A stretch of DNA of 64,000 nt, taken from Chloroflexota bacterium. Lineage in GTDB: Bacteria > Chloroflexota > Anaerolineae > Promineifilales > Promineifilaceae. A model generated the notes under the pieces. It worked only from the letters and a program-made list of their open reading frames with translations. It searched no databases and was not told the DNA's origin. The number at the start of each line of letters is the position of its first letter. Positions within the stretch are counted from its first letter, which is position 1. The translations under genes and the position numbers were made by a program. Location of the stretch: positions 1 to 64,000 of the forward strand of contig JAKEFB010000083.1 in assembly GCA_022616275.1 (NCBI GenBank). The letters are read 5' to 3'. This document shows positions 15,687-41,961 of the stretch, piece after piece.

Positions 15687-17441
15687 CTAACCCGGTAGAT
15701 CAACGCAGTTGCCGGTCTCCAACTGGATCGTGTGATCGGTGTTGGCTACCAGGGAACACATCTGGGTGGCTGCGGCCGGCCGGTCGTTGACGGTATAGCC
15801 GGTGAACGGGTTAGGGCCGCCGTAGACGAACCACGTTTCCTGGGTGGGACCAACGCCGGCGTTTTCCGGGGGGATGGTGTTGAAGAAAAAGTGGATATGC
15901 ATGCCTGGCAGGACTGGATTGTAGCCAAAGGTCTCATAGGTCACGACGTAGTTGCTGCCGTCCAGGGTAATGTTGGTAATGCGCACAAAGGGGCCGGCCG
16001 GGTTGGTGGGTGTGGGGGTGTTAGTCGGCCGGGGCGTGGGCGAGGGTGGGGCGGTGTTGGTCGGCCGGGGCGTGCTGGTGGCCGTGGGCTGAGTCGTGGC
16101 AATGGGCTGGATGGTGGGGGTGGCCACGGCCGTACGGCCTTCGCCTACAGCCTGAGCGGCCTGAGTTTCCAGAAATGCGGTTGTCGCCTGAACGTCAGCC
16201 GTGCCATTAGCCCCGGCTATGGGCGTTTCTTCCGTTCCATCACCGCCAAATAGGCTACCGTTGGCCAGCAAAGCGCCACCAATAATCACGCACAACAGCA
16301 GGAGCAACAGCACAGCCCCGCCTCCAATGAGGAGCAAATTGCGCGAGCGGCCCCCGGCGGCCGGCCGGCTGGCCGGGGCGGACACCGGCACAACCTCCGG
16401 CCGGCCGGCCCCCATAGCAGTCCCGGTAGGCGCACCACCCGTAAAGGGCGGCGCAGTTGGCTGGCTCCCGGTGGGCGGGCGGGCAGCCTCGGCTGCCGGG
16501 ACTCTGGTCGGCGGGGGAGGCGGCGGCAGAATAGTCGTTTTTTCCGGCGTGCGGGCGGTGGCTGGCATTTCCAGTATGGTCGCCTCGGCCGGCGGCAGCT
16601 CCAGGCGCGCGGCGCGCAGGGCGGCGGCCATCTCTGCCGCCGTCTGGTAACGGTCGCTGCGCTCCTTGGCCAGCGCCTTGTTGACGACGGCAACCACGTC
16701 CAACGGAATGTCCGGCCGGAGCTGGCGCAGGTCCGGCACCGGGTCGTTGACGTGCATCATCATTAGCGTCATGGCCGAATCGGCTTTAAACGGCGGCCGG
16801 CCGCCCAGCGCCTCGAACAGCATAACGCCCATCGAGTAAATGTCGCTCCGGGCGTCTACCTGTTGGCCCTTAATTTGCTCCGGCGACATGTAGCGGGCCG
16901 TGCCCAGGACAGCCCCGGTAGCCGTGTGCGAGTCGCCGCCCATGATCTTGACGATGCCAAAGTCCATCAGGATAGCCTGGCCGTGTACGTCCAGCATGAC
17001 GTTGGCCGGCTTAATGTCCCGGTGAATCAAGCCCCGACTGTGGGCGTAATCCAGGGCCTCGCTAACGTTGATGCCAAGGCCGACGGCGTCTTTGACCGGC
17101 ATGAAGCGGTTGTCGTCGTTCAGGCGCTTCAATCGGCTTTGCAGGGTTTCGCCAGGTACAAATTCAAAGACGATAAAGTAGAGGGGGCCATCGTGGTTGA
17201 AGTCGTAGACTTGGATGATGTTGGGGTGGCGCAACTTGGCCACGGCCGCCGCTTCTTCTTCAAAGCGGCGGACGAATTCCGGGTCGCTAGACAGGTGGGC
17301 GTGTATCAGCTTGATGGCTACGACGCGGCGCAGGTTGGGGTCGGTGGCCTTGTAGACGGCCGACATGCCGCCCTGGCCCAGTAATTCCGTGATTTGATAC
17401 CGGCCTCCCAACGTCTGGCCGATCCAGGTGGGTTGACTCAT
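15687..17441 (-). CDS. Membrane Ser/Thr kinase with a short outer domain
   Basis: 584 residues. The kinase domain (about 14-280) differs in sequence from the other kinases here: GQGGMSAVY loop, K44, HRDIKPANV near 140, MDFG, GTARYMSPEQIKGQ. It has a Pro/Ala-rich linker, a membrane helix at about 367-390 (LLLIGGGAVLLLLLLC), then a long TPT-type stalk and a terminal domain of about 110 residues (ITNITLDGSNYVVTYETFGY onward). Two Cys in this domain (in ATQMCSL and TGNCVDL) could form a disulfide. The outer domain is not a family I can name. The ribosome site is GGAGA on the minus strand just before ATG 17441. Confidence 0.9.
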   Translation of the reverse strand: MSQPTWIGQTLGGRYQITELLGQGGMSAVYKATDPNLRRVVAIKLIHAHLSSDPEFVRRFEEEAAAVAKLRHPNIIQVYDFNHDGPLYFIVFEFVPGETLQSRLKRLNDDNRFMPVKDAVGLGINVSEALDYAHSRGLIHRDIKPANVMLDVHGQAILMDFGIVKIMGGDSHTATGAVLGTARYMSPEQIKGQQVDARSDIYSMGVMLFEALGGRPPFKADSAMTLMMMHVNDPVPDLRQLRPDIPLDVVAVVNKALAKERSDRYQTAAEMAAALRAARLELPPAEATILEMPATARTPEKTTILPPPPPPTRVPAAEAARPPTGSQPTAPPFTGGAPTGTAMGAGRPEVVPVSAPASRPAAGGRSRNLLLIGGGAVLLLLLLCVIIGGALLANGSLFGGDGTEETPIAGANGTADVQATTAFLETQAAQAVGEGRTAVATPTIQPIATTQPTATSTPRPTNTAPPSPTPRPTNTPTPTNPAGPFVRITNITLDGSNYVVTYETFGYNPVLPGMHIHFFFNTIPPENAGVGPTQETWFVYGGPNPFTGYTVNDRPAAATQMCSLVANTDHTIQLETGNCVDLPG

Positions 17442-17463: not shown

Positions 17464-17533
17464 AGAGATTAGAGATTGGAGATTACGAGCAACGTTTGTT
17501 GCCAATCTCCAGTCTCCAATCTCCAATCTCCTA
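17464..17533. repeat. AGATTGG heptamer hairpin repeat
   Basis: Tandem AGATTAG/AGATTGG heptamers run into GCAACGTTTGTTGC (a small GCAAC/GTTGC tip) and then into inverted CCAATCT copies. It occupies the gap between two minus-strand genes and reaches the stop codon of the lipoprotein gene at 17531. The same design occurs at 18429, 32636, 39907 and 41897. Confidence 0.85.
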
Positions 17534-18409
17534 ATTTAATAGCCACAACCAGGCGTTATTATACTGGCAGGTGGTGTCGCCTGATTCGTTGAGGGCGACG
17601 AAGGCGATGAAGCCCCGGTCAAAGGCCACGGAAGGCGTCACGTCGCCGAGTTTGGTGCCGTTGGTATAAATACTAAACGTGTTGCCCCGGCCGACGACCA
17701 CCAGGCGGTTGGTGGTGTCGTTCTGCCACTCGAAGAGCGGGTCAATCCCGGTGGCGTAAAAGTCGGTAATTTCGTCGTCTAATACTTCACCATTTTGCAT
17801 GATGATAAAACCGACGTGCCCCTGGGCGCCACGGGTGGCAATAACCATGTATTGGTTGAACGCCTCTTCGTTGCCATCGGTGCGGATGACAAAGCCGCAG
17901 CCGGTCGTGCCGAAACGGGTATTCCAGGTAATGTCGGCCGCCAGAACAAAATCGCGGGCCACCGTGGACAGGAACTCGCCGGCATAGTTATATTGTTGGA
18001 AGCCCTCGGTGAAGATAGTCGCAGGGGGATGAATCCAGCCCAACCGGCCCTGGTTGGGATCTGCCCCATAAGCAGGTAACTCGGCTTTAATCGGGGCCAG
18101 GGCTGCTTCGGTGGCGGCCACGTCGCCGGCGACCGTGGTCGCCTGGGCCACTTCGGTCGCTTCAATAGCCTGGCTTTGTTCCGTCGCCTGGGCCGCCACC
18201 GTGGCTACGGCCACGCCTGGGGTCGGGGTTGTGGTTGGCGGGATTTCGGATGTGTTAGTCGGCAGTGCCCTGGCTGTTTCGGTGGCGGCGATGGACTGGC
18301 TCAAGGCGGTAACAGTCGCTGCCTGGCTACCCCCTGAGCCCACGCCGCAAGCCAGGGTAACGGCCGCCAGGCCAACGAGGAAGAAGATGGGAAACGAAGC
18401 ACGTTTCAT
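17531..18409 (-). CDS. Lipoprotein with a LamG/DUF1080-like domain
   Basis: 292 residues. The signal peptide ends with VTLAC (lipobox), so the protein is probably membrane-anchored outside the cell. A Thr/Ala/Gln-rich stalk of about 90 residues (repeated ATVAAQATEQSQAIEATEVA-like words) is followed by a jelly-roll-like domain from residue 125 (FVLAADITWNTRFGTTGCGF, ...YMVIATRGAQGHVGF, ...NRLVVVGRGNTFSIYTNG). This resembles the concanavalin-type domain on the kinase at 37934-39892, suggesting shared ancestry of the outer sensor modules. No catalytic residues are evident. Repeat elements flank it on both sides. Confidence 0.75.
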   Translation of the reverse strand: MKRASFPIFFLVGLAAVTLACGVGSGGSQAATVTALSQSIAATETARALPTNTSEIPPTTTPTPGVAVATVAAQATEQSQAIEATEVAQATTVAGDVAATEAALAPIKAELPAYGADPNQGRLGWIHPPATIFTEGFQQYNYAGEFLSTVARDFVLAADITWNTRFGTTGCGFVIRTDGNEEAFNQYMVIATRGAQGHVGFIIMQNGEVLDDEITDFYATGIDPLFEWQNDTTNRLVVVGRGNTFSIYTNGTKLGDVTPSVAFDRGFIAFVALNESGDTTCQYNNAWLWLLN

Positions 18410-18506: not shown

Positions 18507-21500
18507 TTAGGTCACATCCTTCCGTTTTTGCAGGATCAAAATGCTAACGAACAGGATGAAGCTAATCACTAATTGAGCGACCCAGGTGGTTAACAGTGTG
18601 CCCCAATAGGCGACGGGGTTGGTTTTGTCCACAAACGTCCAGCCAAAGTCCCGAGTGAAGCCACGAATCATAGCCTCGGCCGGGACGACGGCGGCCTGAA
18701 TGGCCGCTTGCTGCTCCCCTTCCCATTGGGCCAGCTCAGCCTGGTATTCAAACAGGGCTTCCTGGTATGCCTGGACCTGGGCCTGGTAGTCGGCTACCTC
18801 GGCCTGATAGACGTCAAGGGCGGCCCGGTATTGGGCCAACTGGTTGTCGTAGGCGTCTTGAATTTGCTGGACCTGGGCGTCCCATACTTCCAGGGCGTCC
18901 AGGTACTCGGCCACGGCCACCTGGTCGGTATCGTCGGCCGGGCGCGTTGGTTGGGGTGGCAGCTCCGGCCGGGGCGGTTCCTGGGGCGGATCACCCGGTT
19001 CAGGCGGCAACGTGTTCGCCGGCTCTTCCGGCCGGGGCGTGCTTACCTCGGCCGTAACAAACTGGCCCACGCTGGGGAAATTGCAAGAGGCCGGGTTGAG
19101 CGCATTTTGCCCCATACAATTGCAGTTCGCATTTTTGTAATCCAGGTCCAGGGCCTCACGTTGTTCCGAGGGTAGTAGCCAGCAGGCGTCCCTGCCCACG
19201 TCGGAGCCGGCGCCGCTGATAGCCATGAAAGCCTGGAAGGCCCAACGGGTGGAAATAGGGGCACTGACGAAGCTGGGTACTGGGACCAGAGCCCCGCCAA
19301 GGACGATTTGCGGCACCATGAACAGGATGACGATGAGCGGGGCCGAGTTGGCGTTGGGGGCCAGGGCCGAGGAAAACAACCCTAACATCATGCCGCCCAT
19401 CGTGGCCAGAACCAGGGAAATGTACATCAGCCCAAACTCTAGATAACCCCCCGGCATGTCAAAGGCCAGGTAATGGACGACCACGTAGCAGGCGGTCTGG
19501 TAGAGAGCCAACAGGCCGGCTACCCAGATCTTGGACATGATGTAGGGCAGGATCTTCAGGTTGACCAGCCGTTCCCGCCTGTAAATATCCTGTTCTTTGA
19601 CAATTTCGCGCATTTGGGCCAGGCCGCCAACCAGCACGCCATAAACGGTCGGCAAGAAGAGAATAATGAGCACCACCGGGAAGTTGCCGCTGGTAAAGTC
19701 AAAGGGGTTGCTGCCCAGGACGAACGCCAGGAGAACTTGCAGCAAGGCAACCAGCGGCGCGGCAGCCAGCATCAGGGCCAGGCTGAAGCGGTCGCGGGTG
19801 AGAATCTTGATGTTGCGGGCCGAGAGGATGAGAAATTGGCGCAGCGACGACACTTGCCGGCGGCGCCGGGGCTTGGGCGCCGGGGCGGCCGCCGCGACCG
19901 CCTGAAGCTGGGCCTTTTCGTCCTCTTCCAGCGGCTGGGTCACGTACTTCTGGTACGCCGGGTGGCTGCGGAACCGCTCGCCCCAATCGGCCGGCTTACC
20001 TTTGCTGGGGTCGTCCAGGATAGCGTAAATCTCGTCAAACTCTATTTCTCGGGCACGGCGGTCGCGTTCGGAGCGGTATTGGTCAAAATATTGCAGGGCC
20101 TCGTCCGGCGGGCCAAACCAGGCCAGGTGGCCACCACGGGCCAGGAAGACGACCTTATCGGCCAGCATGACGTTTTTGGTGGCGTGAGTAATGAGAACAA
20201 TGGTCCGGCCCTGGTCGGCCAGCCGGCGCATCAATTGCATCAACGCCGTTTCTGTGCCGGGGTCCAGGCCGGAAGTAGGCTCGTCCAGGAAGAAGAGTCC
20301 CGGCTTGGTCAGCAACTCCACGCCGATGGAGACGCGTTTTTGCTGGCCGCCGCTCAGGCCGCTAATTTGCACGTCCTTGCGGTGGGAGAGGTCCAGGTCT
20401 TCCAGCACTTCTTCAATGCGCTTGTGCCGCTCGGCCCTGGTTGTGTCGGAGGGCATGCGCAATTGGGCGGCATAGTCCAGGGCCTGGAAGACGGTCAACT
20501 CCATGTGGATGATGTCTTTCTGGGGGACGTAGCCGATGTCGTTGCGAATAACGTCGAAGTTTTTGTAAACGTCTACGTTGTTGACGTAGACTTTGCCGTG
20601 GGTGGCCGGCCGGTAACCGGCGATAGCGTCCACCAGCGTAGATTTGCCGCCGCCGCTCTGGCCGACGACGACGATGAATTCACGCGGCTGGAAAACCAGC
20701 GAGATATTCTGCAAAATATTCAGGTTCTTGCGCACCCACTTGTTTAGACCAACGGACTCCACGCGCAGGCCGCCCGTTTCGTCGAATTGGGCCAGTTGGT
20801 CCTGGCCCATGACAAAACGGTAAGGGCCAATACGGATGGCGTCCTCTGACTTGAGCCAGACGTCTCCTTCAATGCGCTGGTCGTTGACGAAAGTGCCGTT
20901 GGCGCTGCGCAGGTCGCTGATGCGGTAGCGTTGGCCTACCCGCTCGATCTGGGCGTGGAAGCGGGAGACGACGGGGATGTCCAGGACCACGTCGTTGGTT
21001 GCGTCCCGGCCGATGGTAATCACCGACTTTTCGCCAAACTTGACCAGGTCGGCCGGCGCGCCGGCTATCGCCTCGCTCGGTGAGAGATAAGTCATAGTGA
21101 CCAGCAGGCCGGGGTCCGCCCCGCCAATCCGGAACTTATCTTCATGCTGCAGGCGACGGGAGAAGTTCAGCGGCCGGCCTTCGTGGTAAATGGGGTTGCC
21201 GGCGTCGGGGAAGGGCACCAGTTGGTAACCGTCCCCCACCCGCTCCAGCCGGGCGTGGTGGCGGGAAACGATCTTGGAGTTAACGACGATGTCATTGTCC
21301 TCGGCCCGGCCGATGGTGACGCGATCCTTGGTCAGGGTGTAGGTGAGTAGCGGATTACCGGCAATAGCTATTTCGAGGTGGGGCGGGGTCGTCATCGCCG
21401 GCATGACGAAATCGCGGTCAAGCATCGTCTGGCTGCCGACCGGTGGCGCGGCCATGGCGGGTGCGGCCGGCGCCGCGACGGCTGTCCTGGGCGCGCCAGA

Positions 21501-22277
21501 CGGGGCGGCAATAGCCGTGGCCGACTCATCGGCCGCCGCCGGGAGACGATAAGTGAGAATGACGACGGCGTCGGAATCAAGCTGGCCAATGCGCAGCTCG
21601 TCGCCATTTTCCAGGCGGCGCGGGCCGTTGAGGGGCTGGTCGGCAAACAGCACCGGGTTGCCCGCCGTGGGCGAGGGCACAAGTTCGTAGCCGTTACCAA
21701 CCCGCTCCAGCCGGGCGTGCTGGCGGGAAACAATTCGGGAGTCCAGGACGATGTCGCTGCTTTCGGCCCGGCCGATTGTCAGGCTGGGGCGTTCCAGGCG
21801 AAACGTCTGTGGTGGGCCGCCGCCTATCCTGACAATGAGTTCCGGGGGCTCGGCCTGAGCCGGGGGGCGGGGCGGGGGCCGGAGAGCCGTTGGGAGCGCC
21901 TCCTCAATCATTGTTGGCGGCACGAACTCCTTATCCATCTCCGGGACGTAGATGGCGGTCGCATCGGACGCCGGCCCTTCAAAGCGCAGCACAATGCCCA
22001 ATCCGAGCCGGATCAGGTCGCCGGAGCTAAGCACTTCCCGGGTGGTCAGGCGCTGCTCATTTAGAAAAGTCCCATTACTACTACCCAGGTCTTCCAGGTA
22101 ATATAACCCATCCTGCCGGGTGACGCGCGCGTGGCGGCGTGACACGGCCGAGGACGCAATCACCAGGTCTACCTCAGGATCCCGGCCGATGATAACTGTG
22201 GTTTCGGCCAGCTCAAATTCCTGGCCCGGCGAAGGTCCTTCCTGAATGACCAACTTCGCTTTTACTTCAGATCTCAC
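18507..22277 (-). CDS. Four-FHA-domain ABC-2 transporter (ATPase and permease fused)
   Basis: 1,256 residues. Four FHA phosphothreonine-binding domains lie at about 10-105, 146-240, 300-395 and 408-495 (GRDPEVDL...SRRHARV; GRAESSDI...SRQHARL; GRAEDNDI...SRHHARL; GRDATNDV...SRFHAQI). The ABC ATPase has Walker A GQSGGGKST near 540, signature LSGGQQKRVS and Walker B FFLDEPTSG. The ABC-2 permease starts near 840. The layout resembles mycobacterial Rv1747, but with more FHA domains and a Pro-rich plus coiled-coil insertion (about 1075-1200, VYQAEVADYQAQVQAYQEAL) before the last membrane helix. GTG start with AGGAGG 5 nt upstream. It is divergent from the megasynthase, so it may export that product; kinase control through the FHA domains is inferred. 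Confidence 0.92.
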   Translation of the reverse strand: MRSEVKAKLVIQEGPSPGQEFELAETTVIIGRDPEVDLVIASSAVSRRHARVTRQDGLYYLEDLGSSNGTFLNEQRLTTREVLSSGDLIRLGLGIVLRFEGPASDATAIYVPEMDKEFVPPTMIEEALPTALRPPPRPPAQAEPPELIVRIGGGPPQTFRLERPSLTIGRAESSDIVLDSRIVSRQHARLERVGNGYELVPSPTAGNPVLFADQPLNGPRRLENGDELRIGQLDSDAVVILTYRLPAAADESATAIAAPSGAPRTAVAAPAAPAMAAPPVGSQTMLDRDFVMPAMTTPPHLEIAIAGNPLLTYTLTKDRVTIGRAEDNDIVVNSKIVSRHHARLERVGDGYQLVPFPDAGNPIYHEGRPLNFSRRLQHEDKFRIGGADPGLLVTMTYLSPSEAIAGAPADLVKFGEKSVITIGRDATNDVVLDIPVVSRFHAQIERVGQRYRISDLRSANGTFVNDQRIEGDVWLKSEDAIRIGPYRFVMGQDQLAQFDETGGLRVESVGLNKWVRKNLNILQNISLVFQPREFIVVVGQSGGGKSTLVDAIAGYRPATHGKVYVNNVDVYKNFDVIRNDIGYVPQKDIIHMELTVFQALDYAAQLRMPSDTTRAERHKRIEEVLEDLDLSHRKDVQISGLSGGQQKRVSIGVELLTKPGLFFLDEPTSGLDPGTETALMQLMRRLADQGRTIVLITHATKNVMLADKVVFLARGGHLAWFGPPDEALQYFDQYRSERDRRAREIEFDEIYAILDDPSKGKPADWGERFRSHPAYQKYVTQPLEEDEKAQLQAVAAAAPAPKPRRRRQVSSLRQFLILSARNIKILTRDRFSLALMLAAAPLVALLQVLLAFVLGSNPFDFTSGNFPVVLIILFLPTVYGVLVGGLAQMREIVKEQDIYRRERLVNLKILPYIMSKIWVAGLLALYQTACYVVVHYLAFDMPGGYLEFGLMYISLVLATMGGMMLGLFSSALAPNANSAPLIVILFMVPQIVLGGALVPVPSFVSAPISTRWAFQAFMAISGAGSDVGRDACWLLPSEQREALDLDYKNANCNCMGQNALNPASCNFPSVGQFVTAEVSTPRPEEPANTLPPEPGDPPQEPPRPELPPQPTRPADDTDQVAVAEYLDALEVWDAQVQQIQDAYDNQLAQYRAALDVYQAEVADYQAQVQAYQEALFEYQAELAQWEGEQQAAIQAAVVPAEAMIRGFTRDFGWTFVDKTNPVAYWGTLLTTWVAQLVISFILFVSILILQKRKDVT

Positions 22278-22310: not shown

Positions 22311-22373
22311 CTTTCTGTCACGAATGGCTCAGGCCGATCTCTGGATCCAGCCTGAGCCATTCGCGACAGAAAG
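22311..22373. promoter_or_regulatory. 23-bp inverted repeat in the transporter leader
   Basis: Arms at 22311-22333 and 22351-22373 (CTTTCTGTCACGAATGGCTC plus AGG, and its inverse) differ at one position and enclose a 17-nt loop. On the minus-strand RNA the mismatch becomes a G-U pair, so the hairpin would be stronger in the transporter transcript. It lies about 35 bp upstream of the GTG start. A TATAAT-like -10 on the minus strand (22414-22419) would place it in the leader. It could be an attenuator, an operator, or a relic of a small mobile element. Confidence 0.55.
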
Positions 22374-22651: not shown

Positions 22652-25600
22652 ATGGCTTTGAACCCACGTGTAGTGGATTCCTTCCAGCCGGAGACGCTTG
22701 TTGAACTCCTACGCTGGCGCGCCCAGCGCCAGCCCGACAATTTAGCTTATACGTTCCTGGTTGATGGTGAAACCGAAGAGATCAGCCTGACTTACGCCGA
22801 ACTGGACCAGCGGGCCCGCTCGATTGCTGCCTGGCTGCAGCGCAAGAGTGCGGTCGGGGAACGGGTCTTGTTGCTCTACCCCTCAGGGCTGGATTATATT
22901 GCCGCCTTTTTCGGCTGCCTGTACGCCGGGGTGGTGGCCGTGCCCGCTTACCCGCCCCGGCTCAACCGGCCCTCAGCTCGTATCCAGGGCATTGTCGCCG
23001 ACGCCGAAGCGACCGTAGCCCTGACGACGACCCAAATCCTGGACAACCTGGAGCGCCGCTTTGAACACGCCCCGGACTTGGCCGCGCTACGCTGGCTGGA
23101 TACCGAGGAAATCCCGGCCGGCCTGGAAGCAGAGTGGCGGGAACCAACTGTAATCCCCGAGACCCTGGCCTTTCTGCAGTATACTTCCGGCTCGACCAGC
23201 GCCCCCAAGGGTGTCATGCTGAGCCACGGCAACCTGATCCACAACCTGGCCGTGATTCGCCACGGTTTCCAAATAGATACTGCCAGCCAGGGGGTCTTGG
23301 GGGTCTTTTGGTTGCCCAGCTACCACGATATGGGCCTGATCGGCGGCATCCTGGAGCCGATGTACGTCGGCGGGTCGTCTTTACTGATGTCGCCGGCCGC
23401 TTTCTTACAGCGCCCAGCCCGCTGGCTGGAGGCCATCACCCGCTACCAGGGTGCGATCAGCGGCGCGCCCAACTTCGCCTACCAGTTGTGCGTGGAGAAG
23501 ATCACCCCCGAACAACGCGCCGGCCTGGATCTGAGTAGCTGGCACACCGCTTTTTGTGGCGCTGAACCGATCCGGCCAAGCACGCTGGTCCAATTTGCCG
23601 AGGCCTTTGTCCCTTGTGGCTTCAACCCCCGCGCGTTTTACCCCTGCTATGGTCTAGCGGAAGGCAGCTTGCTGGTCTCCGGCGGTGATGGCCCGGCCGA
23701 GCCAACTATTTACACCATCCGGGCCAGCGCCCTGGGCCAGAACCGGGCCACTCCGGCTGGGGAAACGGAGCAAGACGCCCAGAAAATGGTCAGTTGCGGC
23801 CATGCCCTCCTGGATCAGCAAATCGTCATTGCCAATCCGGAAACGATGAGCCGCTGCGCGGCCGGCGAGGTGGGCGAAATCTGGATGGCCGGGCCGAGTG
23901 TGGCCCAGGGGTATTGGGGCCGGCCGGAGCAGACGGCGGCCACCTTCCAGGCTTACCTGGCCGACAGCGGCGAGGGACCGTTTTTGCGTACCGGCGACCT
24001 GGGCTTCCTGCACGAGGGCGAACTGTACGTGACCGGCCGGCTAAAAGACCTGATTATCATTCGCGGCCGCAACCATTACCCCCAGGACCTGGAATTGGCG
24101 GCCGAGCAAAGCCACGAGGCCCTGGAGCCGCATATGGGCGCGGCTTTCTCCGTAGAAGTGAACGGCGAGGAGCGGCTGGTCATCGTTCACGAAGTCACTC
24201 GCCGCCATCGCAAGGTGGACGTCCGGGAAGTGGCAGCGGCCGTGCGCCAGGCCCTGGCCGAACAGCACGAAATACAGCTTTACGCCCTGACGCTGATTAA
24301 ACCATTGAGCATCCCCAAGACTTCCAGCGGCAAAATCAAGCGTCACGCTTGCAAGCTCTGCTTCCTTGACGGCACGCTCGAAATCATCGGCCAGTGGCGC
24401 CTGGACGAGCCGAAGGAAGCAGCGCCGCAACCAGCCCAAACCGGCGAGACACTTGAAAAGCTCATAATCGGCGGTCAATCCAAAATCCAAAATCAAAAAT
24501 CTAAAATCGAATCCTGGCTAGTCGAACAACTGGCGACGCGAGTGAACCTCTCGCCGGCCGGGATAGACATTCGCCAGCCCTTTGCCGCCTATGGCCTGGA
24601 CTCGGTCCAGGCCGTCAGCCTGGCCGGGGAGCTGGAAAGCTGGCTCGGCCGCAGCCTGCCGCCGACGCTGGCCTGGGATTACCCGACTATTGCCGAGCTG
24701 GCCGCCCACCTGGCCGGGGACGAAACGCCCACTGAGACGGACAGCAGACAGCCGGCCGGCCGACATGTCTCCACCCACGAACCCATCGCCGTCATTGGCC
24801 TGGGTTGCCGTTTTCCCGGCGCGCCAGACCCCGACGCCTTCTGGCAACTGCTGCACGACGGCGTAGACGCCATCCGCGAAGTGCCGCCGGACCGTTGGGA
24901 CGTGGACGCCTTTTACGCCGCCAAAGATGGTGTCCGGGGCAAAATGAACACCCGTTGGGGTGGTTTCCTGGACCAGATTGACCACTTTGACCCCCGCTTT
25001 TTTGGCATTGCCCCCCGCGAGGCCAGCCGCATGGACCCCCAGCAGCGGCTGTTGCTGGAAGTGGCCTGGGAAGCGCTGGAAAACGCCGGTCTGATCCCTG
25101 GCGACCTGGCCGAAAGCGCCACCGGCGTCTTTGTTGGCATCAGCAGCTACGACTACTCTCGCTTGCAGTTCAGCGACCCCGGCCAGATTGACGCTTACGC
25201 CGGCACGGGCAACGCCCACAGTATTGCCGCCAACCGCCTCTCTTACCTGCTGGACCTGCGCGGCCCCAGCCTGGCCGTGGACACGGCCTGTTCCTCGTCC
25301 CTGGTGGCCATGCACCTGGCCATACAGAGCCTGCGTAACGGCGAATCGGACCTGGCCCTGGCTGGCGGGGTCAATCTGCTGCTGGCTCCCGAATTGACCA
25401 TTACCTTTTCCCAGGCGCGGATGATGGCCGCCGACGGCCGGTGCAAAACCTTTGACGCCCGGGCCGACGGTTACGTGCGCGGCGAAGGCTGCGGCCTGGT
25501 GGTTCTCAAGCGGCTGTCCGACGCGCTGCACGACGGCGACAACGTCCTGGCCGTGCTCCGTGGCTCGGCCGTCAACCAGGACGGCCGCAGCAACGGCCTG

Positions 25601-28600
25601 ACTGCCCCCAACGGGCCGGCTCAGCAGGCCGTCATTCGCCAGGCCCTGGCCGACGCCGAGGCTGACCCAGCGGCCATCAGTTATATAGAGGCCCACGGCA
25701 CGGGAACGCCCCTCGGCGACCCCATCGAGATCCAGTCATTGCGCGCCGTTCTGGAGGATGGCCGGCCGGATGGCCAGAGCTGCCTCGTCGGTTCAGTCAA
25801 GACCAACGTCGGACACCTGGAGGCCGCGGCCGGTGTGGCCGGGCTGATCAAGGTCGTCCTGGCCTTGCAGCACGGCGAGATCCCGCCGCACCTGCACTTC
25901 CGGGAATTAAACCCGTACATTTCCCTGGATGGGTCGCCGCTGGCTATCGCCACCGGCCGTTGCGCCTGGCCGGCTGGGGCCACGCCGCGCCTGGCCGGGG
26001 TCAGCTCCTTTGGCTTTGGCGGCACCAACGCCCACATCGTCGTCTCTGATTTCCAGCCCCAGGCGGGTGGCGGCCGGCCGGCGCCTGGCCTGGAACGCCC
26101 TTTACATCTGCTGGCCCTCTCGGCCCGGAGCGACCAGGCGCTGCAGGCGCTGGCCCGGCGTTATGAACGCTATCTGGCCGAAGCCAACCGGCCGGAACTC
26201 GCCCTGGCCGATGTGTGTTTCACGGCCAATACCGGCCGGACCTACTTTGACCACCGCCTGGCGCTGGCGGCCGGTTCGGCCGAGGCGCTGCAAGAGCGAC
26301 TGGCTGCTTTCCTGGCTGCGCCTCGGCCAGGAGTTACTCCTAAAGATCGGCGGGTAGCCTTTTTATTCACCGGCCAGGGGTCGCAATACACGGGCATGAG
26401 CCGCCGGCTGTATGAAACCCAGCCCACTTTCCGCGCCGCCCTGGACCGCTGCGCCGAGATTTTACAGCCTTATCTGGAACGGCCGCTTTTGTCAGCTCTT
26501 TTTGAGGCAGGCACGACAAGCCTGGACCAGACAATCTACACCCAACCGGCCCTCTTTGCCCTGGAGTACGCCCTGGCCGAGCTATGGCGTTCCTGGGGCG
26601 TTGAGCCGGCTGTGCTTATGGGTCACAGCGTCGGCGAGTACGTCGCCGCTTGCCAGGCCGGCGTGTTTAGCCTGGAAGACGGCCTGAAGCTGATTGCCGC
26701 CCGCGGCCGGCTAATGCAGACCCTGCCGCCGGGTGGAGAGATGGCGGCCGTTTTTGCCGGGCAGGATCAGGTGGCCGCGGCCATAGTCTCCTACGCCGGC
26801 CAACTCTCCATTGCCGCCGTGAATGGGCCGGAGAACGTCGTTGTGGCCGGCGAGGCCGCCGCCGTACGGGCTGTGCTGGCCGGGCTGGCGGCCGATGGTG
26901 TTGAGGCCCGGCCGCTAACCGTCTCTCACGCCTTCCACTCGCCGCTGATGGAGCCAATGCTGGATGAATTTGAAGCGGTGGCGCGCGAAATCGCTTTCCG
27001 GCCGCCGCAGCGGCCGCTCATCTCCAACCTCACCGGCCGGCTATGGGCGGCCGGTGAAACGCCTGACGCCGCTTACTGGCGGGCCCACGTTCGCCAGCCG
27101 GTCCACTTTGCCGCCGGCATGGAAGCGCTGTTTGCCGAAGGGCTGGCCATTTTCCTGGAGATTGGCCCCCAACCCCACCTGCTGGGCCTGGGCCGCCGCT
27201 GCCTGCCCGCTGGCCAGGCGGCCGGGACGATGTTGTGGCTGCCCTCGCTGCGAGAGAAGCAGGACGACTGGGCGGTGCTGTTGGAGAGCCTGGCGGCGCT
27301 CTACACTGCCGGCGTGGCCGTAGACTGGACTGGCTTTGACCGGGATTATATCCGCCGGAAAGTAACTCTGCCGACGTACCCCTTTGAACGGGAACGTTAT
27401 TGGTTGGAGGTTGCGCCCGGCCACCACGCCGGCCCAGGACGGGCCGGCCTGAGCGCCAGACAACCAGAAGCGCCGGCCGATTTGCATCCGTTGCTGGGCC
27501 AGCGCTTACGGGCGGCTGTGCCCATCTTTGAGGCCCGTTTTGACCCGGCCGGGCTGGTAGACCTGCCAACGACTTTTGGCGAGATGGCCCTGGCTGCGGC
27601 ATTTGAGCTTTTTGGACCAGGCCCGCACCGGTTGGAAGGGGTGACAGTGGCCGAAATGCGACTGGAAAGCGGCCCGGTGACCTGGCAGACGCTCCTGGCC
27701 CTTGACGGCGACCAGGCCATGACCTTCCAGATTTTTGCCTGGAAGGCCGGGGCGGAAGCCTGGCAGTTGCAAGCCAGCGGTCGTGTGTGGCGCGGCGCGG
27801 TGGCTGGCACGATGATTGAGCGGCAGCCAGAGGTAGAGCCGGCCGGCACAACCGGGCTAACCGGCCGGCCGGAAATTGAAGCGTTTCTTCGCCAGCGCGC
27901 GGCGCAGGTCCTGGGGCTACCGCCGGCTCAAGTTGGCCTGGACCAGCCGTTAGATGCGCTGGGGCTGGATTCATTGATGGCCATCGAGCTACGCAACGCG
28001 CTGGAAAATAGCCTGGGCGTTACCTTGCCGGTCGTCAATTTCTTGCAAGGCCCGACGATTACCGCCCTGGTCGGGCAGTTGTTGGAACTCCTGGCTGCGC
28101 CGCAAACGGCCGGGCCGGCCATCCGGCCGGTGGCGGCCGGGGGTCTGGCGCCGCTCTCTTACGGCCAGCAGGCGATGTGGTTCCTGCACCAGTTGCTGCC
28201 CGAAGACGTCTCCTTTAACGTGGCTGGAGCGGTGCGCCTGCACGGGCGGCTGGATGTGGCTGCTCTCCGCCGGGCCTGGCAGCGGTTGGTAGAGCGCCAC
28301 GCAGCGCTACGGACCACTTTCCACGTAGTGGCTGGGCAGCCGGTGCAGCAGGTCCGGCCGGACCTGGCCGCGCCGCTGGACGAGGTGGACGCCACGACCT
28401 GGGACGAAACAGCCCTGCGCCACTTTCTGGAAGGGGAGGCCTACCGGTCGTTTGACCTAGAGCAGGGGCCGCTACTACGGTTGGTGCTGTTAGCCCGGTT
28501 GGCCGAAGAACACGTTTTACTGCTGTCGCTCCATCACATTGTGACCGATTTCTGGTCTATGTCGCTCCTCGTTCAAGAACTGCATTTACTGTATGCTGCC

Positions 28601-31600
28601 GAAACAGGAATGGAGGAAGCGACCCTGCCTCCATTAGAGTTGCAGTACGGCGACTACGTTTACTGGCAAAAAGAGCTGCTGGATGGGCCTGAGGGGGAGC
28701 GGGTACGGTCCTATTGGCTGAAGAAGTTATCTGGCGAGCTGCCTGCGTTAAATCTGCCTACCGACCGGCCGCGGCCAGCCGGCCAGACCTTTAAGGGCGC
28801 GCTCGCCAGCCGTCGCCTGAACCCGGCGCTGGCCCACCAGTTGAAAGCGGTCGGCCAGGCGCACGGAGCCACGCTGTACGTGACCTTGTTGGCTGCCTTC
28901 CAGGCGCTGTTGCACCGCTACACCGGCCAGGAGGAGTTGCTGGTCGGCTCGGTGGTCGCCGGCCGGGAGCGGCCGGAGCTGGCCGGGTTGATGGGCTACT
29001 TTATTAACCCGGTGGCTATCCGGGCTGATTTTTCTGGCAACCCGACCTTCGGCGATTTCCTTAAGCAAGCTCGCCAGACCGTCCTGGAGGCGTTTGCCCA
29101 CCAGGAATATCCGCTGCCGCTGCTGGCCGAGCGGCTGGCCTTTGAACGTGACCCCAGCCGGCCGCCGCTGTTTGAGACGATGTTCATCATGCAGAAAGCC
29201 CAGGTGTTGGAGGAGCAGGGGTTGAGCGCCTTTGCCCTGGGGCTGCCCGGAGCGCGGCTAACCCTGGGCGAACTGAGCGTCGAGTCTCTGGCCCTCGACG
29301 GGTTGCCGGCCCAGTTTGACCTGACGCTGATGATGGCCGAGCTGGACGGTGGCCTGGCCGCTACGCTGCACTATAACGCCGATCTCTTTGACCCGGCCAC
29401 GATGGAACGAATGCTGGCCCATCTGGAGAGCCTGTTAGCTGGCATTGCTGTTATGCCGGACACGCCGGTGGCGGCCTTACCGTTGCTGGCCCCAACCGAG
29501 CGCCAGCAATTATTGGAGACGTGGAACCAGACGGCGGCCGACTACCCCCGCCACCTCTGCCTCCACCAACTGGTGGAAGCCCAGGCCGAACGGACGCCGG
29601 ACGCGGTGGCCGTCTCTTATGATGATACTCACCTGACTTATGACGTGCTTAACCGGCGGGCCAACCAACTGGCCCGGGTTTTGCAGCAGGCGGGCGTCGG
29701 GCCAGAGTCGCTGGTAGCCATTGCCCTGGAGCGCTCGGCCGGCATCCTGGTTGGCCTGTTAGGGATTCTAAAGGCCGGTGGGGCTTACGTGCCCCTCGAT
29801 CCCGCTTTCCCGCCGGCCCGGCTGGCTATGATGCTGGCCGACGCCCGGCCGGTAGTTCTCCTCACCAGCCGTGGCCTGGCTGAGACGGCCGTGGAAGGGT
29901 GGTTGGCTGAGGGTGAGCATCGGCCGGAGATCATTTACCTGGACGAACTCTATAGGGCGCATTTGAATGTGCCACCCGTTGGAGCGGGCGCTACAAACTT
30001 GAAGAGCGGCGTCCAGCCAGAGAACCTGGCTTACGTCATCTATACTTCCGGCTCGACCGGCCGGCCGAAGGGAGTGCAAATTCCCCACCGGGCTGTCGTT
30101 AACTTTCTGGCCAGCATGGCCCGGCAGCCCGGACTATCCAGTGCAGACGTGCTGTTGGCGGTGACGACCCTATCCTTTGACATCGCCGGGCTGGAGCTGT
30201 TCTTGCCGCTGACGGTGGGGGCGCGGGTGGTCATTGCCAGCCGGGAGATGGCCGTCGATGGGACGCAGTTACAGGCGCTCATCAGGGCCTCGGGGGCAAC
30301 GGTGATGCAGGCCACGCCGGCCACCTGGCGGATGTTGCTGGAGGCGGGCTGGGACGGCCAGCCGGGGCTCAAAATTCTCTGCGGCGGCGAGGCGCTGCCC
30401 CGCGACCTGGCCGACCGGCTCCTGGCCGGGGGCGCCGCCGTCTGGAATATGTATGGCCCAACGGAGACGACCATCTGGTCTACACTCTACCAGGTCCAGC
30501 CCGGCTGTGGGCTGGTCTCCATCGGCCGGCCGGTTGCCAACACCCAGGTCTACGTCCTGGACCAGGCCCTACAGCCGGTCCCGATCGGCGTGCCAGGCGA
30601 CCTGTACATTGGCGGCGACGGGGTGGCGCGGGGCTACCTCAACCGGCCGGGACTGACGGCCGAGCGCTTCGTCCCCAATCCCTTTCTGGCCGGCGCGCCG
30701 GGCCAGCCCACGCCGATGCTCTACAAAACGGGCGACCTGGCCCGCTACCTGCCGGACGGCAACATTCTCTTCCTCGGCCGGGGCGACCACCAGGTGAAGG
30801 TCCGGGGCTATCGCATTGAGTTGGGCGAGGTTGAAGCGGCCCTGGCCCGGCACCCGGCCGTGCAGCAGAACGTGGTCGTGGCCCGGGAAGATCGGCCAGG
30901 AGAGCGGCGGCTGGTGGCTTACCTGGTGTTGAAGCCAGAGCCGGAAACGCCGCAAGCCGGCGAGTGGCGCGCTTTCTTGCGGGAGCGGCTGCCGGATTAT
31001 ATGGTCCCGGCTGCCTTTGTTATCCTGGAGGCGCTGCCCCTGACGCCCAACGGCAAGGTCAACCGGCGCGCCCTGCCGGCCCCGGCCGGCGTCCAGGCCC
31101 GGGGCACGGATTACGTCGCGCCGCGCACGCCCCTGGAAGAGCAACTGGTAACCCTCTGCGCCAGCGTCCTGGGCCAGGCCCAGGACGGCGACCGGCCGCC
31201 GTTGGGTGTCAACGACAATTTCTTTGACCTGGGCGGGAACTCTCTGCTGGCTACCCGCCTGATCTTCCAGGTGCGGGAAACGTTCCAGGCCCAGGTGCCG
31301 CTGCGCTACCTCTTTGCCGAACCGACGGTAGCCGGCCTGGCCAAAGCCGTGGAAGTGGGGCGGGAGATAGGCCAACGGCCGGTCAGCGGCTCCCCAACCA
31401 GCAATGGCTCGTCGGCCAATGGTCATTCTCGGCTGTCTTTGTTTGAGACTGTAACGGTGGCCGAGTTAAACGCCGAAGCAAAGCTGGACCCGGCTATTAC
31501 CGCGAGCGAATTGCCTGGCAATCCGCCTTTTATCTTCCCGGCCCGGCCGGCGCACATCTTCCTGACCGGGGCTACCGGCTTCGTGGGCGCTTTCTTGCTG

Positions 31601-32635
31601 CACGATCTGCTACAACAGACCCGGGCCACCCTCCATTGCCTGGTGCGGGCCGATGACCCCTCCGCCGGCCGGCGCCGGCTGCAGCAGAACCTGGAAGTCT
31701 ATGGCTTATGGGATGAGCGTTTTGCGGAACGGATTGAGCCGGTGACTGGCGACCTGGGCCGGCCGCGTTTTGGCCTGTCTGAAGCGGTGTTCCGGCGACT
31801 GGCCGATACCGTTGAGGTAATCTACCACAACGGGGCGCTGGTCAACTTCATCTACCCCTATACCGCCCATAAGGCAGCCAACGTCCTCGGCACCCAGGAA
31901 GCGCTGCGACTGGCCGTCCAGGGGCGGTTGAAGCCGCTCCACTTTGTCTCGACCCTGTCTGTCTTTCACACCGGCGGCCATGACGACGGCGTCGTCTATT
32001 CCGAAGCGGAAGACCTGGACAGGGTAGGCGCGCCGTTTGGCGGCTACGCCCAGAGCAAGTGGGTGGCCGAAAAGCTGGTCATGGCGGCTCGTGAGCGGGG
32101 CATTCCGGTAGCCATATACCGGCCGGGGCTGGTCTCCGGCCATAGCCAGACCGGCGCCTGGAACACCGACGACATGATGTCTACCCTGGCCCGGGCCAGC
32201 TTCCTGGCCGGCGTGCTGCCCGACCTGGACGTGATGGTGGACGTGGTCCCGGTGGATTACGTCAGCGGGGCCATTGTTCGCCTGTCACAACAGCCGGGCT
32301 CGCTGGGCCGAGTTTTCCACCTGACCAACCCCCGGCCGATGGCCTACCGGGAGTTGGTCGGGTGGGTGCGCTCGCTGGGGCTGGACGTGCAGCCGTTGCC
32401 CTTCGTCGAGTGGCGGCAGCGCCTGGCCGACCTGGCCCGCCAATTTGGCGGCAACGCCTTTCTGCCGCTCCTGGAAGAGGTCACGGCCGACCAGGTGTTT
32501 ATGCCGGCTTTTGACTGCAGCAACACCCTGGCCGGGCTGGCCGGCAGCGATCTGCATTGCTCGCCGGTTGGCCCGGAATTACTGGCTACCTACCTGGCTT
32601 ACTTTACTGAAAAGGGGCTGATTGTAGGAGATTAG
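22652..32635 (+). CDS. Hybrid FAAL-PKS-NRPS megasynthase with reductive release
   Basis: 3,327 residues on one chain. FAAL (1-590, [11 protein letters not shown] near 176) should load a fatty acid as acyl-AMP; ACP1 (GLDSVQA near 649); KS (710-1135) with C880 in [16 protein letters not shown] and [10 protein letters not shown] (1235-1540) with S1326 in GHSVGEY and HAFH 1426-1429, the malonyl-CoA signature. A DH-like remnant (about 1612-1720) lacks the catalytic His, and no KR or ER is present. ACP2 (GLDSLMA near 1771); C domain (1836-2290) with HHIVTDF at 1961; A domain (2318-2810) with specificity residues DILQLGMIWK, one change from the glycine code; PCP (GGNSLLA near 2862); TR (2965-3327) with TGATGFVG and YAQSKW. 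Predicted product: beta-ketoacyl-glycinal or a derivative. ATG with AAGGGA upstream. Confidence 0.95.
24476..24514 (+). repeat. In-frame AAAATCC/AAAATCT repeat in the megasynthase
   Basis: An A-rich tandem array of AATCCAAAATC and AAAATCTAAAATC words is translated as [11 protein letters not shown] between the FAAL and ACP1 domains. The surrounding DNA is GC-rich, so it stands out. The same words form the intergenic hairpin at 52905-52945. Confidence 0.8.
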
Positions 32636-32702: not shown

Positions 32703-32792
32703 AAAGTAAAATGACTGCACGAAACGATTTCAGCCCGGCTTGACGGCCGGCAATAAAAATAATTAAGGTATTGGGTAATTTAAGGATTGACT

Positions 32793-33473
32793 ATGACTGC
32801 AACAAGACCTTTGTCGCGTACCTGGCACTACGGCCTGCTCTGGCTGCTTGCCCTCCTTTCTCTTTTATTCAACGCTGTTCTGATCATTACTTTGTTGAGC
32901 CTGCGGGCCCAGGCTCGCGAGGAGGTCAACCAGGCCATTGAAATCCTCAACGAAGCTACACTGGAAAATTTCGACTTGCCCGTTCACGTAGACGAGACGC
33001 TGGCCATCTCTATGACCGTTCCCTACAGCGACACCTTTGTCGTGCCAATCAGCGCCACCGTGCCGGTGTCTACCTCGGTCTTGTTTAAGGACAACATTCA
33101 GGTACCGATTGATACCATTATCCCGGTGAACACGACGGTTCACGTGCCGGTAGACATCCCGGTGGCCGGCCGGGTGACGATACCGATTCCTATTTTCACC
33201 AATATCCCTGTGAGCCTGACGGTAGAAGTACCGATCAGCCGGACCATCCCGGTGCGAACTGACATCCCCGTAGACTTGATGGTGACGATTCCGGTGCAAA
33301 GTGAGATACCGATCCAAACCGACGTGCCGGTGCTCCTGGACTTTCCGGTGACCATCCCCCTCAGTGAATTGGGCTTTCAGGCTTTAGTAGAGCAGTTGCA
33401 GGAGGCACTGGCCGCCATGGCCGAAATGTTGGGCGGCCCACCGCCGGCGCCAGCACCGGCGCCAGGCTCGTAG
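32793..33473 (+). CDS. Membrane-anchored VPI-repeat protein, unknown function
   Basis: 226 residues; no family recognised. A Ser/Thr/Arg-rich N-terminus leads to one membrane helix (about 13-40, LLWLLALLSLLFNAVLIITL), a short helical neck (REEVNQAIEILNEA), and then some 120 residues of alternating hydrophobic beta-like repeats with a 10-14-residue period built on xVPIxxxIPVxT (VPISATVPVS, VPIDTIIPVN, VPVDIPV, VPISRTIPV). A short helix and a Pro/Ala tail close it. The strand pattern suggests a rod- or barrel-like surface structure. ATG 32793 has AAGGA 6 nt upstream. It follows the megasynthase on the same strand and may be part of that locus. Confidence 0.75.
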   Translation: MTATRPLSRTWHYGLLWLLALLSLLFNAVLIITLLSLRAQAREEVNQAIEILNEATLENFDLPVHVDETLAISMTVPYSDTFVVPISATVPVSTSVLFKDNIQVPIDTIIPVNTTVHVPVDIPVAGRVTIPIPIFTNIPVSLTVEVPISRTIPVRTDIPVDLMVTIPVQSEIPIQTDVPVLLDFPVTIPLSELGFQALVEQLQEALAAMAEMLGGPPPAPAPAPGS

Positions 33474-34993: not shown

Positions 34994-35725
34994 TTGGTGG
35001 AGTGGCTTGTAGCGCCGGTTGAGCTGGTCTTGGGGCCGGCCGAGGTTCATGTCTGGCGGGCCTGGCTGGAGCAGCCGGATAACCTCTTTGACCAACTGGC
35101 CCGGACGTTGTCCGAGGACGAACGGGCCAGGGCAGCGCGCTTTAAGTTTGAGAAAGACCGGCGGGCGTACACCATTGCCCGGGGCGTCCTGCGCGCGCTG
35201 CTCGGCCGCTACCTGGGCCGCCGGCCGGAAGAGGTTGGCTTTATCTACACCCCTCACAACAAGCCGCTCCTGGCCGAGGCGTCACCTCTCTCCTTCAATC
35301 TCTCCCACTCCCACCAACTGGCCTTGCTGGCCTTTACCCTGGACCGGCTCGTCGGCGTGGACGTGGAATACGTGCGGGCCATGCCGGACGCGGCCGGGCT
35401 GGCCGAACGGTTTTTCTCACCTGCCGAGTACGCCGCCTGGCGGGCCGTCCCGGCCGAACAACAGCCACTGGCCTTCTTTAATTGCTGGACGCGCAAAGAA
35501 GCCTTTGTCAAGGCCCTGGGGGAGGGCCTGACTCACCCGCTGGACCAGTTCGACGTTTCACTGGCCCCGGGAGAAGCAGCTCGCCTGCTGGCCGTTGCCG
35601 GTAGCCGGGCCGAAGCCGCTCGCTGGTCGTTGGCGGCCTTCACGCCCGCCTTCCACTACGCCGCCGCTGTGGCCGTCCAGGAACGCGGGCCATTGCTCAT
35701 TCGAGGCTTTGAATGGCCGGGTTAA
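34994..35725 (+). CDS. Sfp-type 4'-phosphopantetheinyl transferase
   Basis: 243 residues. It transfers the phosphopantetheine arm of CoA to the conserved Ser of carrier proteins. Visible are the Sfp-type central motif LVGVDVEYV (Mg-binding D and E) and CWTRKEAFVKALGEGL, matching WxxKEAxxK, as well as the upstream RGVLRALLGRYL and the FNLSHSH segment. The two-domain length is typical of enzymes acting on PKS/NRPS carriers, and the megasynthase nearby has three carrier sites. The start is TTG 34994 or GTG 34997; GGAG at 34985-34988 comes from the flanking repeat. The last 29 bp overlap the convergent kinase gene. Confidence 0.92.
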   Translation: MVEWLVAPVELVLGPAEVHVWRAWLEQPDNLFDQLARTLSEDERARAARFKFEKDRRAYTIARGVLRALLGRYLGRRPEEVGFIYTPHNKPLLAEASPLSFNLSHSHQLALLAFTLDRLVGVDVEYVRAMPDAAGLAERFFSPAEYAAWRAVPAEQQPLAFFNCWTRKEAFVKALGEGLTHPLDQFDVSLAPGEAARLLAVAGSRAEAARWSLAAFTPAFHYAAAVAVQERGPLLIRGFEWPG

Positions 35726-37850: not shown

Positions 37851-37897
37851 CGCTCTTTACCACCTTCCCTATTCATACACTCTAACTCTCACTCTAG

Positions 37898-37924
37898 CCG
37901 GGTTTTGGCCTTACCAAAACCTGG
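37898..37924. terminator. Hairpin between two kinase genes
   Basis: CCGGGTTTTGG (37898-37908) and CCAAAACCTGG (37914-37924) form an 11-bp stem with one wobble position and a 5-nt loop, just after the stop of the 37934-39892 kinase gene on the minus strand. No T-run follows. ACTCTAACTCTCACTCTAG words stand beside it. Confidence 0.5.
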
Positions 37925-37933
37925 CCCTAGCTC

Positions 37934-39892: not shown

Positions 39893-39906
39893 CAAACTGA
39901 CACTGT

Positions 39907-39975
39907 AAGAGATTGGAGATTGGAGAATAGAGATTAGAGATTGACCTAATCTCCAATCTCTAATCTCTAATCTCC
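39907..39975. repeat. AGATTGG heptamer hairpin repeat
   Basis: GAGATTGGAGATTGGAGA and AGATTAGAGATTG words face inverted AATCTCCAATCTCTAATC copies across a short TGACC centre. It fills the gap between two kinase genes and ends at the stop codon of the upstream one. Confidence 0.85.
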
Positions 39976-39978
39976 CAT

Positions 39979-41889: not shown

Positions 41890-41896
41890 GAGTTAA

Positions 41897-41957: not shown

Positions 41958-41961
41958 TAGA

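What the first reader, a model, noticed from the sequence alone, without database searches (positions are those of the whole stretch)
22652..32635. Single-chain FAAL-PKS-NRPS-reductase predicted to make acyl-glycinal or acyl-pyrrolinone lipids
The domain order FAAL-ACP-KS-AT-ACP-C-A-PCP-TR is read directly from motifs. The AT has the malonyl HAFH motif, no KR/ER is present, and the TR keeps TGATGFVG and YAQSKW. A fatty acid extended once by malonate, joined to an amino acid and released as an aldehyde can undergo intramolecular Knoevenagel closure to a 3-acyl-pyrrolin-2-one, as known for fungal PKS-NRPS products. Whether this happens here, and which fatty acid is loaded, is inference.
Basis: partly seen in the sequence, partly recalled or inferred. 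Interest (0 to 1): 0.85.

Follow-up and report, generated by a model that had tools for sequence, protein, structure and literature searches.

The report
Glycine-lipid assembly-line genes in Chloroflexota
One very large enzyme, shared with its neighbour genes by a number of Chloroflexota genomes, is built to join a fatty acid, malonate and glycine and to release the product by reduction, probably as an undescribed surface lipid that then receives a sugar and is exported.

Summary
Window 22652-32635 (+) is one intact 3327-aa ORF, FAAL-ACP-KS-AT-(DH remnant)-ACP-C-A-PCP-TR, with catalytic motifs present. The A-domain code DILQLGMIWK means glycine; glycine-type codes occur in all 25 related rows flagged. 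The architecture appears in 23 of the best 80 loci of a genome scan, all Chloroflexota.

It sits in a conserved, apparently undescribed cluster: kinase, lipoprotein and FHA-ABC exporter upstream; thioesterase, phosphopantetheinyl transferase and sometimes FabF downstream. Of 31 loci, 26 carry exactly one of two glycosyltransferase types (7 GT1, 19 TMEM260-like, none both); one other has a PMT-type protein, one a sulfotransferase, three neither.

No KR, and no hydroxylase noticed by eye. The TR is closest to alcohol-forming MxaA. I favour an N-(3-oxoacyl)glycinol lipid, glycosylated and exported (0.45). Sequence cannot decide the electron count; no product has been seen.

The parts
22652..32635 (+). 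FAAL-ACP-KS-AT-(DH remnant)-ACP-C-A-PCP-TR synthase, 3327 aa
22694..24400 (+). Fatty acyl-AMP ligase domain with a 27-residue FAAL-type insertion
24503..24721 (+). First ACP (approximate bounds)
   Evidence: (one of three PP-binding stretches)
24779..25900 (+). Ketosynthase, Cys and both His motifs present
26360..27319 (+). Acyltransferase, HAFH (malonyl-type) motif
27485..27739 (+).
27884..28075 (+). Second ACP
28148..29515 (+). Condensation domain, HHIVTDF (second His kept, G replaced by F)
29576..31057 (+). Adenylation domain, code DILQLGMIWK (glycine)
31127..31336 (+). PCP (approximate bounds)
31553..32623 (+). Thioester reductase (TIGR01746), TGATGFVG and YAQSK
18507..22277 (-). Four FHA domains fused to an ABC/ABC-2 (ABCG-type) half transporter; a homologue lies divergent to the synthase in 19 of 21 loci with at least 1.5 kb upstream
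17531..18409 (-). Putative lipoprotein, conserved beside the FHA-ABC gene where fetched stretches reach it
15687..17441 (-). Ser/Thr protein kinase; homologue in the same neighbourhood in L019, L048/L059 and L050/L073
32787..33473 (+). Membrane-anchored protein of VPV/IPV repeats (ATG at 32793); near the synthase also in L019, L022, L124, L085, L088
33579..34859 (-). GT1/EryCIII-like glycosyltransferase; its best non-self match in the eight genomes searched is the GT of G372's cluster (54%)
34994..35725 (+). 4'-phosphopantetheinyl transferase (PF01648; best NCBIfam hit HetI, below that model's cut-off)

Best explanation
The protein is a complete lipid assembly line. The FAAL loads a free fatty acid on the first ACP. 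KS and AT extend it with malonate, most simply once, leaving the 3-keto group because there is no KR and the DH is a remnant. C, A and PCP join it to glycine. The TR releases it with NADPH. I commit to four-electron release, giving an N-(3-oxoacyl)glycinol (a 3-oxo-N-acylethanolamine). The resulting hydroxyl then receives a polar head group, here from the GT1 glycosyltransferase at 33579-34859, in relatives from a TMEM260-like transferase or, in one small lineage, a sulfotransferase. The FHA-ABC exporter, perhaps gated by the neighbouring Ser/Thr kinase, moves it out. Shown by sequence: domains, motifs, glycine code, conserved cluster, alternation of transferases. Inferred: single extension, electron count, which hydroxyl is modified, export substrate, kinase link. 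I give about 0.8 to 'reductively released N-(3-oxoacyl)glycine lipid' (alcohol or cyclised aldehyde) and 0.45 to the full alcohol-and-head-group version.
For: Domains and motifs. Glycine code in 8 of 8 synthases compared, window included, and in 25 of 25 flagged rows of the scan. Closest solved TR is MxaA, 340.2 bits, against 278.7 for 8v1x, 120.9 for mycobacterial Nrp and 59.6 for AusA; myxalamid and glycopeptidolipids are named as four-electron cases in PMC12304814 (passage). Of 31 loci with at least 2.4 kb downstream, 7 have GT1, 19 TMEM260-like, none both; L060 has a PMT_2 protein and L124 a sulfotransferase, with like sulfotransferases at 61-62% in L085 and L088. In G254 and G315 the only PF11028 match of the genome lies in the cluster. 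The synthase has no KR; no hydroxylase was noticed among neighbour ORFs read by eye. In hgl islands PKS, thioester reductase, ABC transporter and PPTase are listed together and HglT adds the sugar last (PMC11804610, passages).
Against: A 3-oxoacyl-glycinal could cyclise before a second hydride arrives: in the biomimetic synthesis for BurF the aldehyde closed at once (PMC12304814). Absence of a KR in every synthase with this architecture seen here is unexplained if the product is a simple alcohol, but is needed for ring closure. TR similarity is not a tested predictor of electron count; 8v1x is also a good match and its product was not looked up; MxaA lies outside the clade on a long stem. The transferases could act on a hydroxyl of the loaded fatty acid, on an enol, or on something unrelated. 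L017, L019 and L100 have none beside the synthase (G031, the genome of L017, has a TMEM260-like gene on another contig, 66% identical to that of L022). PF11028 is common in family f1 (7 to 9 matches in each of four genomes), so its linkage is specific only in f29. The GT1 cases amount to perhaps two independent gains.
Confidence: 0.45

Rival explanations
1. One reading: the TR stops at the aldehyde, and the N-(3-oxoacyl)glycinal closes by Knoevenagel condensation to a 3-acyl-pyrrolin-2-one, possibly trapped as a glycosylated or methylated tautomer.
For: The parts needed, and little more, are present and conserved: 3-keto, glycine, intact TR. BurF: aldehydes trapped from substrate mimics, and butenolide formation (PMC12304814, passages). 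Mutanoclumpin: FAAL-primed PKS-NRPS, proposed two-electron release and aldol closure to a five-membered lactam, with isotope feeding (PMC12403116, passages). Methyltransferases in several clusters could fix an enol form.
Against: Closest solved TR is MxaA, named as alcohol-forming. A plain 3-acyl-pyrrolinone has no ordinary hydroxyl for the glycosyl- or sulfotransferases.
Confidence: 0.35
2. The TR domain acts as a Dieckmann cyclase without redox and releases a 3-acyl tetramic acid, whose enol is glycosylated or methylated.
For: Fungal R* domains do this (stated in PMC12304814, passage), and glycine plus a 3-keto acyl chain is the right substrate. An enol would suit the tailoring enzymes.
Against: The NADPH-binding TGATGF(V/L)G and the Tyr-Lys pair are kept in 25 of 25 flagged rows; the fungal PKS-NRPS psoA is a distant match at 73 bits.
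Confidence: 0.07
3. The KS-AT module works several times, or the chain receives further trans-acting steps, so that the product is longer or differently oxidised than one ketide plus glycine; the FabF-like gene of many clusters would take part.
For: A FabF-type synthase is in at least 13 of 31 clusters, with Cys and first His motifs in the ten sequences checked.
Against: The window has no FabF in its cluster; a non-reducing iterative module would make poly-keto chains, and no cyclase was noticed. FabF more simply supplies the fatty acid.
Confidence: 0.08

Closest known systems
MxaA (myxalamid terminal C-A-PCP-TR)
   Same: Closest solved TR (4u7w, 340.2 bits); myxalamid is named as a four-electron release (PMC12304814, passage).
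   Different: Recalled, not tested: MxaA is a separate protein that loads alanine after a reduced polyene chain, without a FAAL. Its TR lies outside this clade.
Mutanoclumpin synthetase (mcg, Streptococcus mutans)
   Same: FAAL-primed fatty acid, ketide extension, amino acid, terminal R domain, proposed aldehyde and five-membered lactam (PMC12403116, passages).
   Different: Several proteins and modules, Ser at the end, peptide units; product carries a pyrrolidone, in part macrocyclic; no glycosyltransferase in the passages read.
BurF (malleicyprol)
   Same: PKS-NRPS hybrid with terminal Red domain, aldehyde and Knoevenagel-type closure (PMC12304814, passages).
   Different: Terminal module described as C-T-Red; joins an alpha-hydroxy acid as an ester and gives a butenolide. 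Sequence not fetched.
Heterocyst glycolipid (hgl) islands
   Same: PKS, thioester reductase, PPTase, ABC transporter, glycosyltransferase; replacement of the head-group enzyme is discussed (PMC11804610, passages). The window PPTase's best NCBIfam hit is HetI, 231.9 bits against a cut-off of 370.
   Different: From the passages and recall: a PKS product without glycine; sugar on a long-chain aglycone.
Mycobacterial Rv1747/PknF
   Same: FHA domains fused to a G-subfamily ABC half transporter beside a Ser/Thr kinase (PMC3908365, passages).
   Different: Two FHA domains, not four; its substrate is stated as unknown in that paper.

Membership tests
Fatty acyl-AMP ligase (FAAL) | FAAL-specific insertion in the N-terminal domain | tested here: met
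   27 extra residues against the protein's own A domain; alignment to a solved FAAL domain over residues 15-583 with few gaps
Fatty acyl-AMP ligase (FAAL) | Makes acyl-AMP and transfers to ACP, not CoA | not testable with these tools
   needs biochemistry
Thioester reductase (TIGR01746) | Score above curated cut-off; NADPH motif; Tyr-Lys pair | tested here: met
   357.9 bits against 213.35; motifs in window and 25 of 25 flagged rows
Alcohol-releasing (four-electron) TR | Reduces the released aldehyde again | tested here: inconclusive
   closest solved relative is MxaA, but it lies outside the clade; no assay
Acyl-pyrrolinone-forming PKS-NRPS-R | 3-keto chain, amino acid, R domain with redox motifs | tested here: met
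   no KR found, DH remnant, glycine code, intact TR motifs
Acyl-pyrrolinone-forming PKS-NRPS-R | Aldehyde release and ring closure | not testable with these tools
   needs product analysis
Active PKS dehydratase | HxxxGxxxxP catalytic His | tested here: not met
   motif absent in the window and the five relatives with the insert; present in DH domains of L134 and L137 aligned by eye
hgl-type glycolipid island | HglT orthologue and Hgl PKS proteins | not tested
   only the logic is compared

The most novel reading that the evidence does not exclude
A new class of bacterial surface lipid: a fatty acid, malonate and glycine assembled on one polypeptide and reduced to an N-(3-oxoacyl)glycinol, then capped with interchangeable head groups (sugar by unrelated enzyme types, or sulfate) and exported by a kinase-gated FHA-ABC transporter, kept across a broad set of Anaerolineae as a structural lipid rather than a sporadic antibiotic.
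Probability: 0.3. Interest if true: 0.8.

Novelty: new variant of a known kind. Interest (0 to 1): 0.55.

Why it matters
Anaerolineae are widespread and mostly uncultured, and their surface lipids are little known (general knowledge, not tested here). A one-protein synthase with a fixed glycine code makes a short, testable prediction: three masses separate alcohol, pyrrolinone and tetramate. It would show whether bacteria use NRPS chemistry for a conserved surface lipid with exchangeable head groups, and what decides between two- and four-electron release when a 3-keto amide waits beside the aldehyde.

Tried and rejected
A full commitment to the pyrrolinone was set aside because of the transferases and the MxaA similarity. 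Active DH: rejected. Relatives outside the phylum: 44 of the 80 scan loci are not Chloroflexota and none of those shows the full architecture, though several are cut by contig ends; the scan kept the best 80 of 240 candidates found by two TR peptide patterns, so weaker relatives were not seen. PDB search with the DH remnant: nothing at E up to 1. TR tree: I gave the 'full' label also to truncated loci presumed to be of the same kind; the label then needs three changes because L085, L088 and L097 were left unlabelled; 8v1x and L129 are long branches that meet, and the bootstrap had not fully settled. Literature: no description of this cluster among the listed results of searches (open-licence PMC; capped lists, one search was swamped by general terms). 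PMC10681181 (passages) tabulates one NRPS and one NRPS/PKS hybrid in an Anaerolineales sludge bin without more in those passages. Structure prediction of the DH remnant could not be run, so no fold search was made.

Rows left out of the 31-locus count: L061, L062, L063, L071, L073 (same contigs as L019, L017, L022, L049, L050 by length and genes), L069 (near-copy of L048), L096 and L102 (under 2.4 kb downstream), and L085, L088, L097, L106 (too little of the synthase seen). L019 was counted with L020. Some of the 31 have a truncated or split synthase (for example L022, L067, L070, L074, L089, L091, L095, L100).
Full report
OBSERVATION. Window 22652-32635 (+) is a single uninterrupted ORF of 3327 aa. 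The window is part of contig C285 of an unnamed 8.5-Mb genome in 309 contigs. The scan loci with the same architecture come from records titled Chloroflexi, Chloroflexota, Anaerolineae or Anaerolineales. Pfam and NCBIfam find FAAL/AMP-binding, three PP-binding stretches, KS, AT, C, A and thioester reductase. The motif HxxxGxxxxP is absent, and next to intact DH domains found in L134 and L137 the window keeps the leading HPLLG element and the EMALAAA element but not the segment with the catalytic His between them (compared by eye). L017, L019, L021, L091 and, more loosely, L124 have an insert of the same kind, also without the motif. Of 27 scan rows measured, 23 have AT-ACP linkers of 76 to 117 residues and four (L061, L062, L091, L124) of 169 to 184; the four f29 orthologues have only a short linker. 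No ketoreductase was found, so the 3-keto group should remain.

CATALYTIC PARTS. The FAAL carries 27 more residues than the in-cis A domain between equivalent motifs, as expected for the FAAL-specific insertion described in PMC8460268 (passages), and is closest to the solved domain 7r7f. In one search, 25 scan rows were flagged (the 23, of which L095 and L139 have a shortened FAAL, plus L091 and L102, cut by contig ends before the FAAL). Among them the A code is DILQ[LI]G[MLV][IV]WK in 25 of 25; the TR keeps its NADPH motif and Tyr-Lys pair in 25 of 25; the AT reads HAFH in 23 of 25 (exceptions L091, L124); the C motif reads xHxxxDF in 24 of 25 (L124 has DL); the KS cysteine is present in the 24 where it can be read. 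The window code DILQLGMIWK is reported for glycine-activating domains in PMC12283262 (passage). The same code pattern holds in the eight synthases, window included, one of them split over two contigs.

DISTRIBUTION. In a search of 80 genomes, own included, orthologues at 59 to 63% identity were found in G009, G031 and G016 (the last split over two contigs). In 397 genomes drawn from the class, own included, G254, G315, G372 and G377 were added (only the two best candidates per genome were scored). The scan of the named collection, with two TR peptide patterns, found 240 relatives and kept the best 80. Of these, 23 show the full architecture in one ORF, all Chloroflexota; several more are cut by contig ends; none of the 44 loci from other phyla shows it. 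Four of the 23 (L061, L062, L071, L073) and the truncated L063 are contigs already seen under G handles. In the TR tree of 83 rows the window and all rows given the label fall in one branch of 36 rows, all Chloroflexota (100/99), which also holds L085, L088 and L097; MxaA and two myxobacterial relatives lie outside it.

CLUSTER. Neighbours are constant. Upstream and divergent lies a homologue of the FHA-ABC protein in 19 of the 21 loci with at least 1.5 kb upstream; its ABC part is within the fetched stretch in 16 of these 19, and in L065, L093 and L124 only FHA sequence is seen. Exceptions: L050, where it lies on the other side (L073), and G016 (L021), where a kinase gene stands there instead. 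Behind it come a putative lipoprotein and a Ser/Thr kinase in several of the loci that reach far enough. Downstream, among 31 loci with at least 2.4 kb: type II thioesterase in 26, PPTase in 25, FabF-like synthase in 13 (contig ends make these lower bounds). The window has kinase, lipoprotein, FHA-ABC, repeat protein, GT1 and a PPTase (47% identical to that of L048), but no thioesterase or FabF in the cluster. Its genome has 13 PF00975 matches, four covering most of the model, two of those in stand-alone ORFs of about 250 aa.

HEAD-GROUP ENZYMES. In the downstream flank, on the opposite strand, 7 of 31 loci have a GT1/EryCIII-like glycosyltransferase (the window among them), 19 a TMEM260-like (PF11028) membrane transferase, and none both. 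L060 has a PMT_2 membrane protein and L124 a sulfotransferase; L017, L019 and L100 have none of these nearby. L085 and L088, outside the 31, hold sulfotransferases 62% and 61% identical to that of L124. G031, the genome of L017, has the TMEM260-like gene with the repeat protein on another contig, 66% identical to that of L022. G254 and G315 have a single PF11028 match each, and it is the cluster's; but four f1 genomes have 7 to 9 each, so there the linkage says less. The window's GT1 has its best match among the eight genomes, apart from itself, in the GT1 of G372's cluster, at 54%; the next is a paralogue in its own genome at 48%. The alternation is not 26 independent events: the GT1 cases are the window and one group of related loci, so perhaps two gains (reading the tree). 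Several clusters also carry unrelated SAM methyltransferases.

MECHANISM. FAAL loading, malonate extension, glycine addition and reductive release follow from established domain chemistry. The open point is the number of electrons. For an alcohol: glycosyl- and sulfotransferases need a hydroxyl; the synthase makes none without four-electron release; no hydroxylase was noticed among the neighbour ORFs, which I read by eye from their first residues, only some being scanned with Pfam; the closest solved TR is MxaA, 340.2 bits against 278.7 (8v1x), 120.9 (mycobacterial Nrp) and 59.6 (AusA). Heterocyst glycolipid islands combine PKS, thioester reductase, PPTase, ABC transporter and a glycosyltransferase (PMC11804610, passages). 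For an aldehyde that cyclises: no KR is seen in any synthase of this architecture here; in the BurF work a biomimetic aldehyde closed at once and aldehydes were trapped from substrate mimics (PMC12304814, passages); mutanoclumpins are proposed, with isotope feeding, to arise by two-electron release and aldol closure to a five-membered lactam (PMC12403116, passages). A Dieckmann-type release is disfavoured by the intact NADPH and Tyr-Lys motifs. I weigh these as 0.45, 0.35 and 0.07, with 0.08 for iterative or trans-acting variants.

KNOWN OR NEW. Each domain and each reaction type is known. The single-chain combination with glycine, its conserved cluster and the alternating head-group enzymes were not found in the listed results of literature searches, which cover open-licence papers only. 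I file it as a new variant of a known kind (FAAL-primed PKS-NRPS with reductive release). Taxon names are those of the record titles; a placement of f1 or f29 in a named family was not tested.

Noticed in passing
window 22311-22373: A 24-nt inverted repeat (96% complementary, 15 nt between the arms) in the divergent intergenic region between exporter and synthase; the only matches in the genome are this place itself, on both strands.
   Followed up: partly
window 35697-46301: Ser/Thr kinases joined to different C-terminal parts (CBM9-like, PD40) with a LysM protein and a PP2C phosphatase among them; seven kinase genes were recognised among the window proteins scanned.
   Followed up: no
window 32787-33473 and L052, L053, L054, L055, L124, L085: A membrane-anchored protein made of VPV/IPV repeats; 19 of 53 family genomes hold a relative, seven of them close (E 1e-50 or lower), and four close ones lie on stretches without a synthase. 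A lipid-carrying role is a guess.
   Followed up: partly
window 3350-5029, 5053-6678, 46303-47808: Three proteins with a Beta-lactamase2 (PF13354) domain.
   Followed up: no
L109 5096-11464 (Nostoc sp. NMS4): A cyanobacterial FAAL-PCP-C-A-PCP-TR protein whose last A domain reads DILQLGLIWK: similar logic without the ketide step.
   Followed up: no
L085, L088, L124: A sub-lineage with a methyltransferase, the repeat protein and a sulfotransferase directly after the synthase; in L088 repeat-protein and sulfotransferase sequence lie in one 484-aa ORF.
   Followed up: partly
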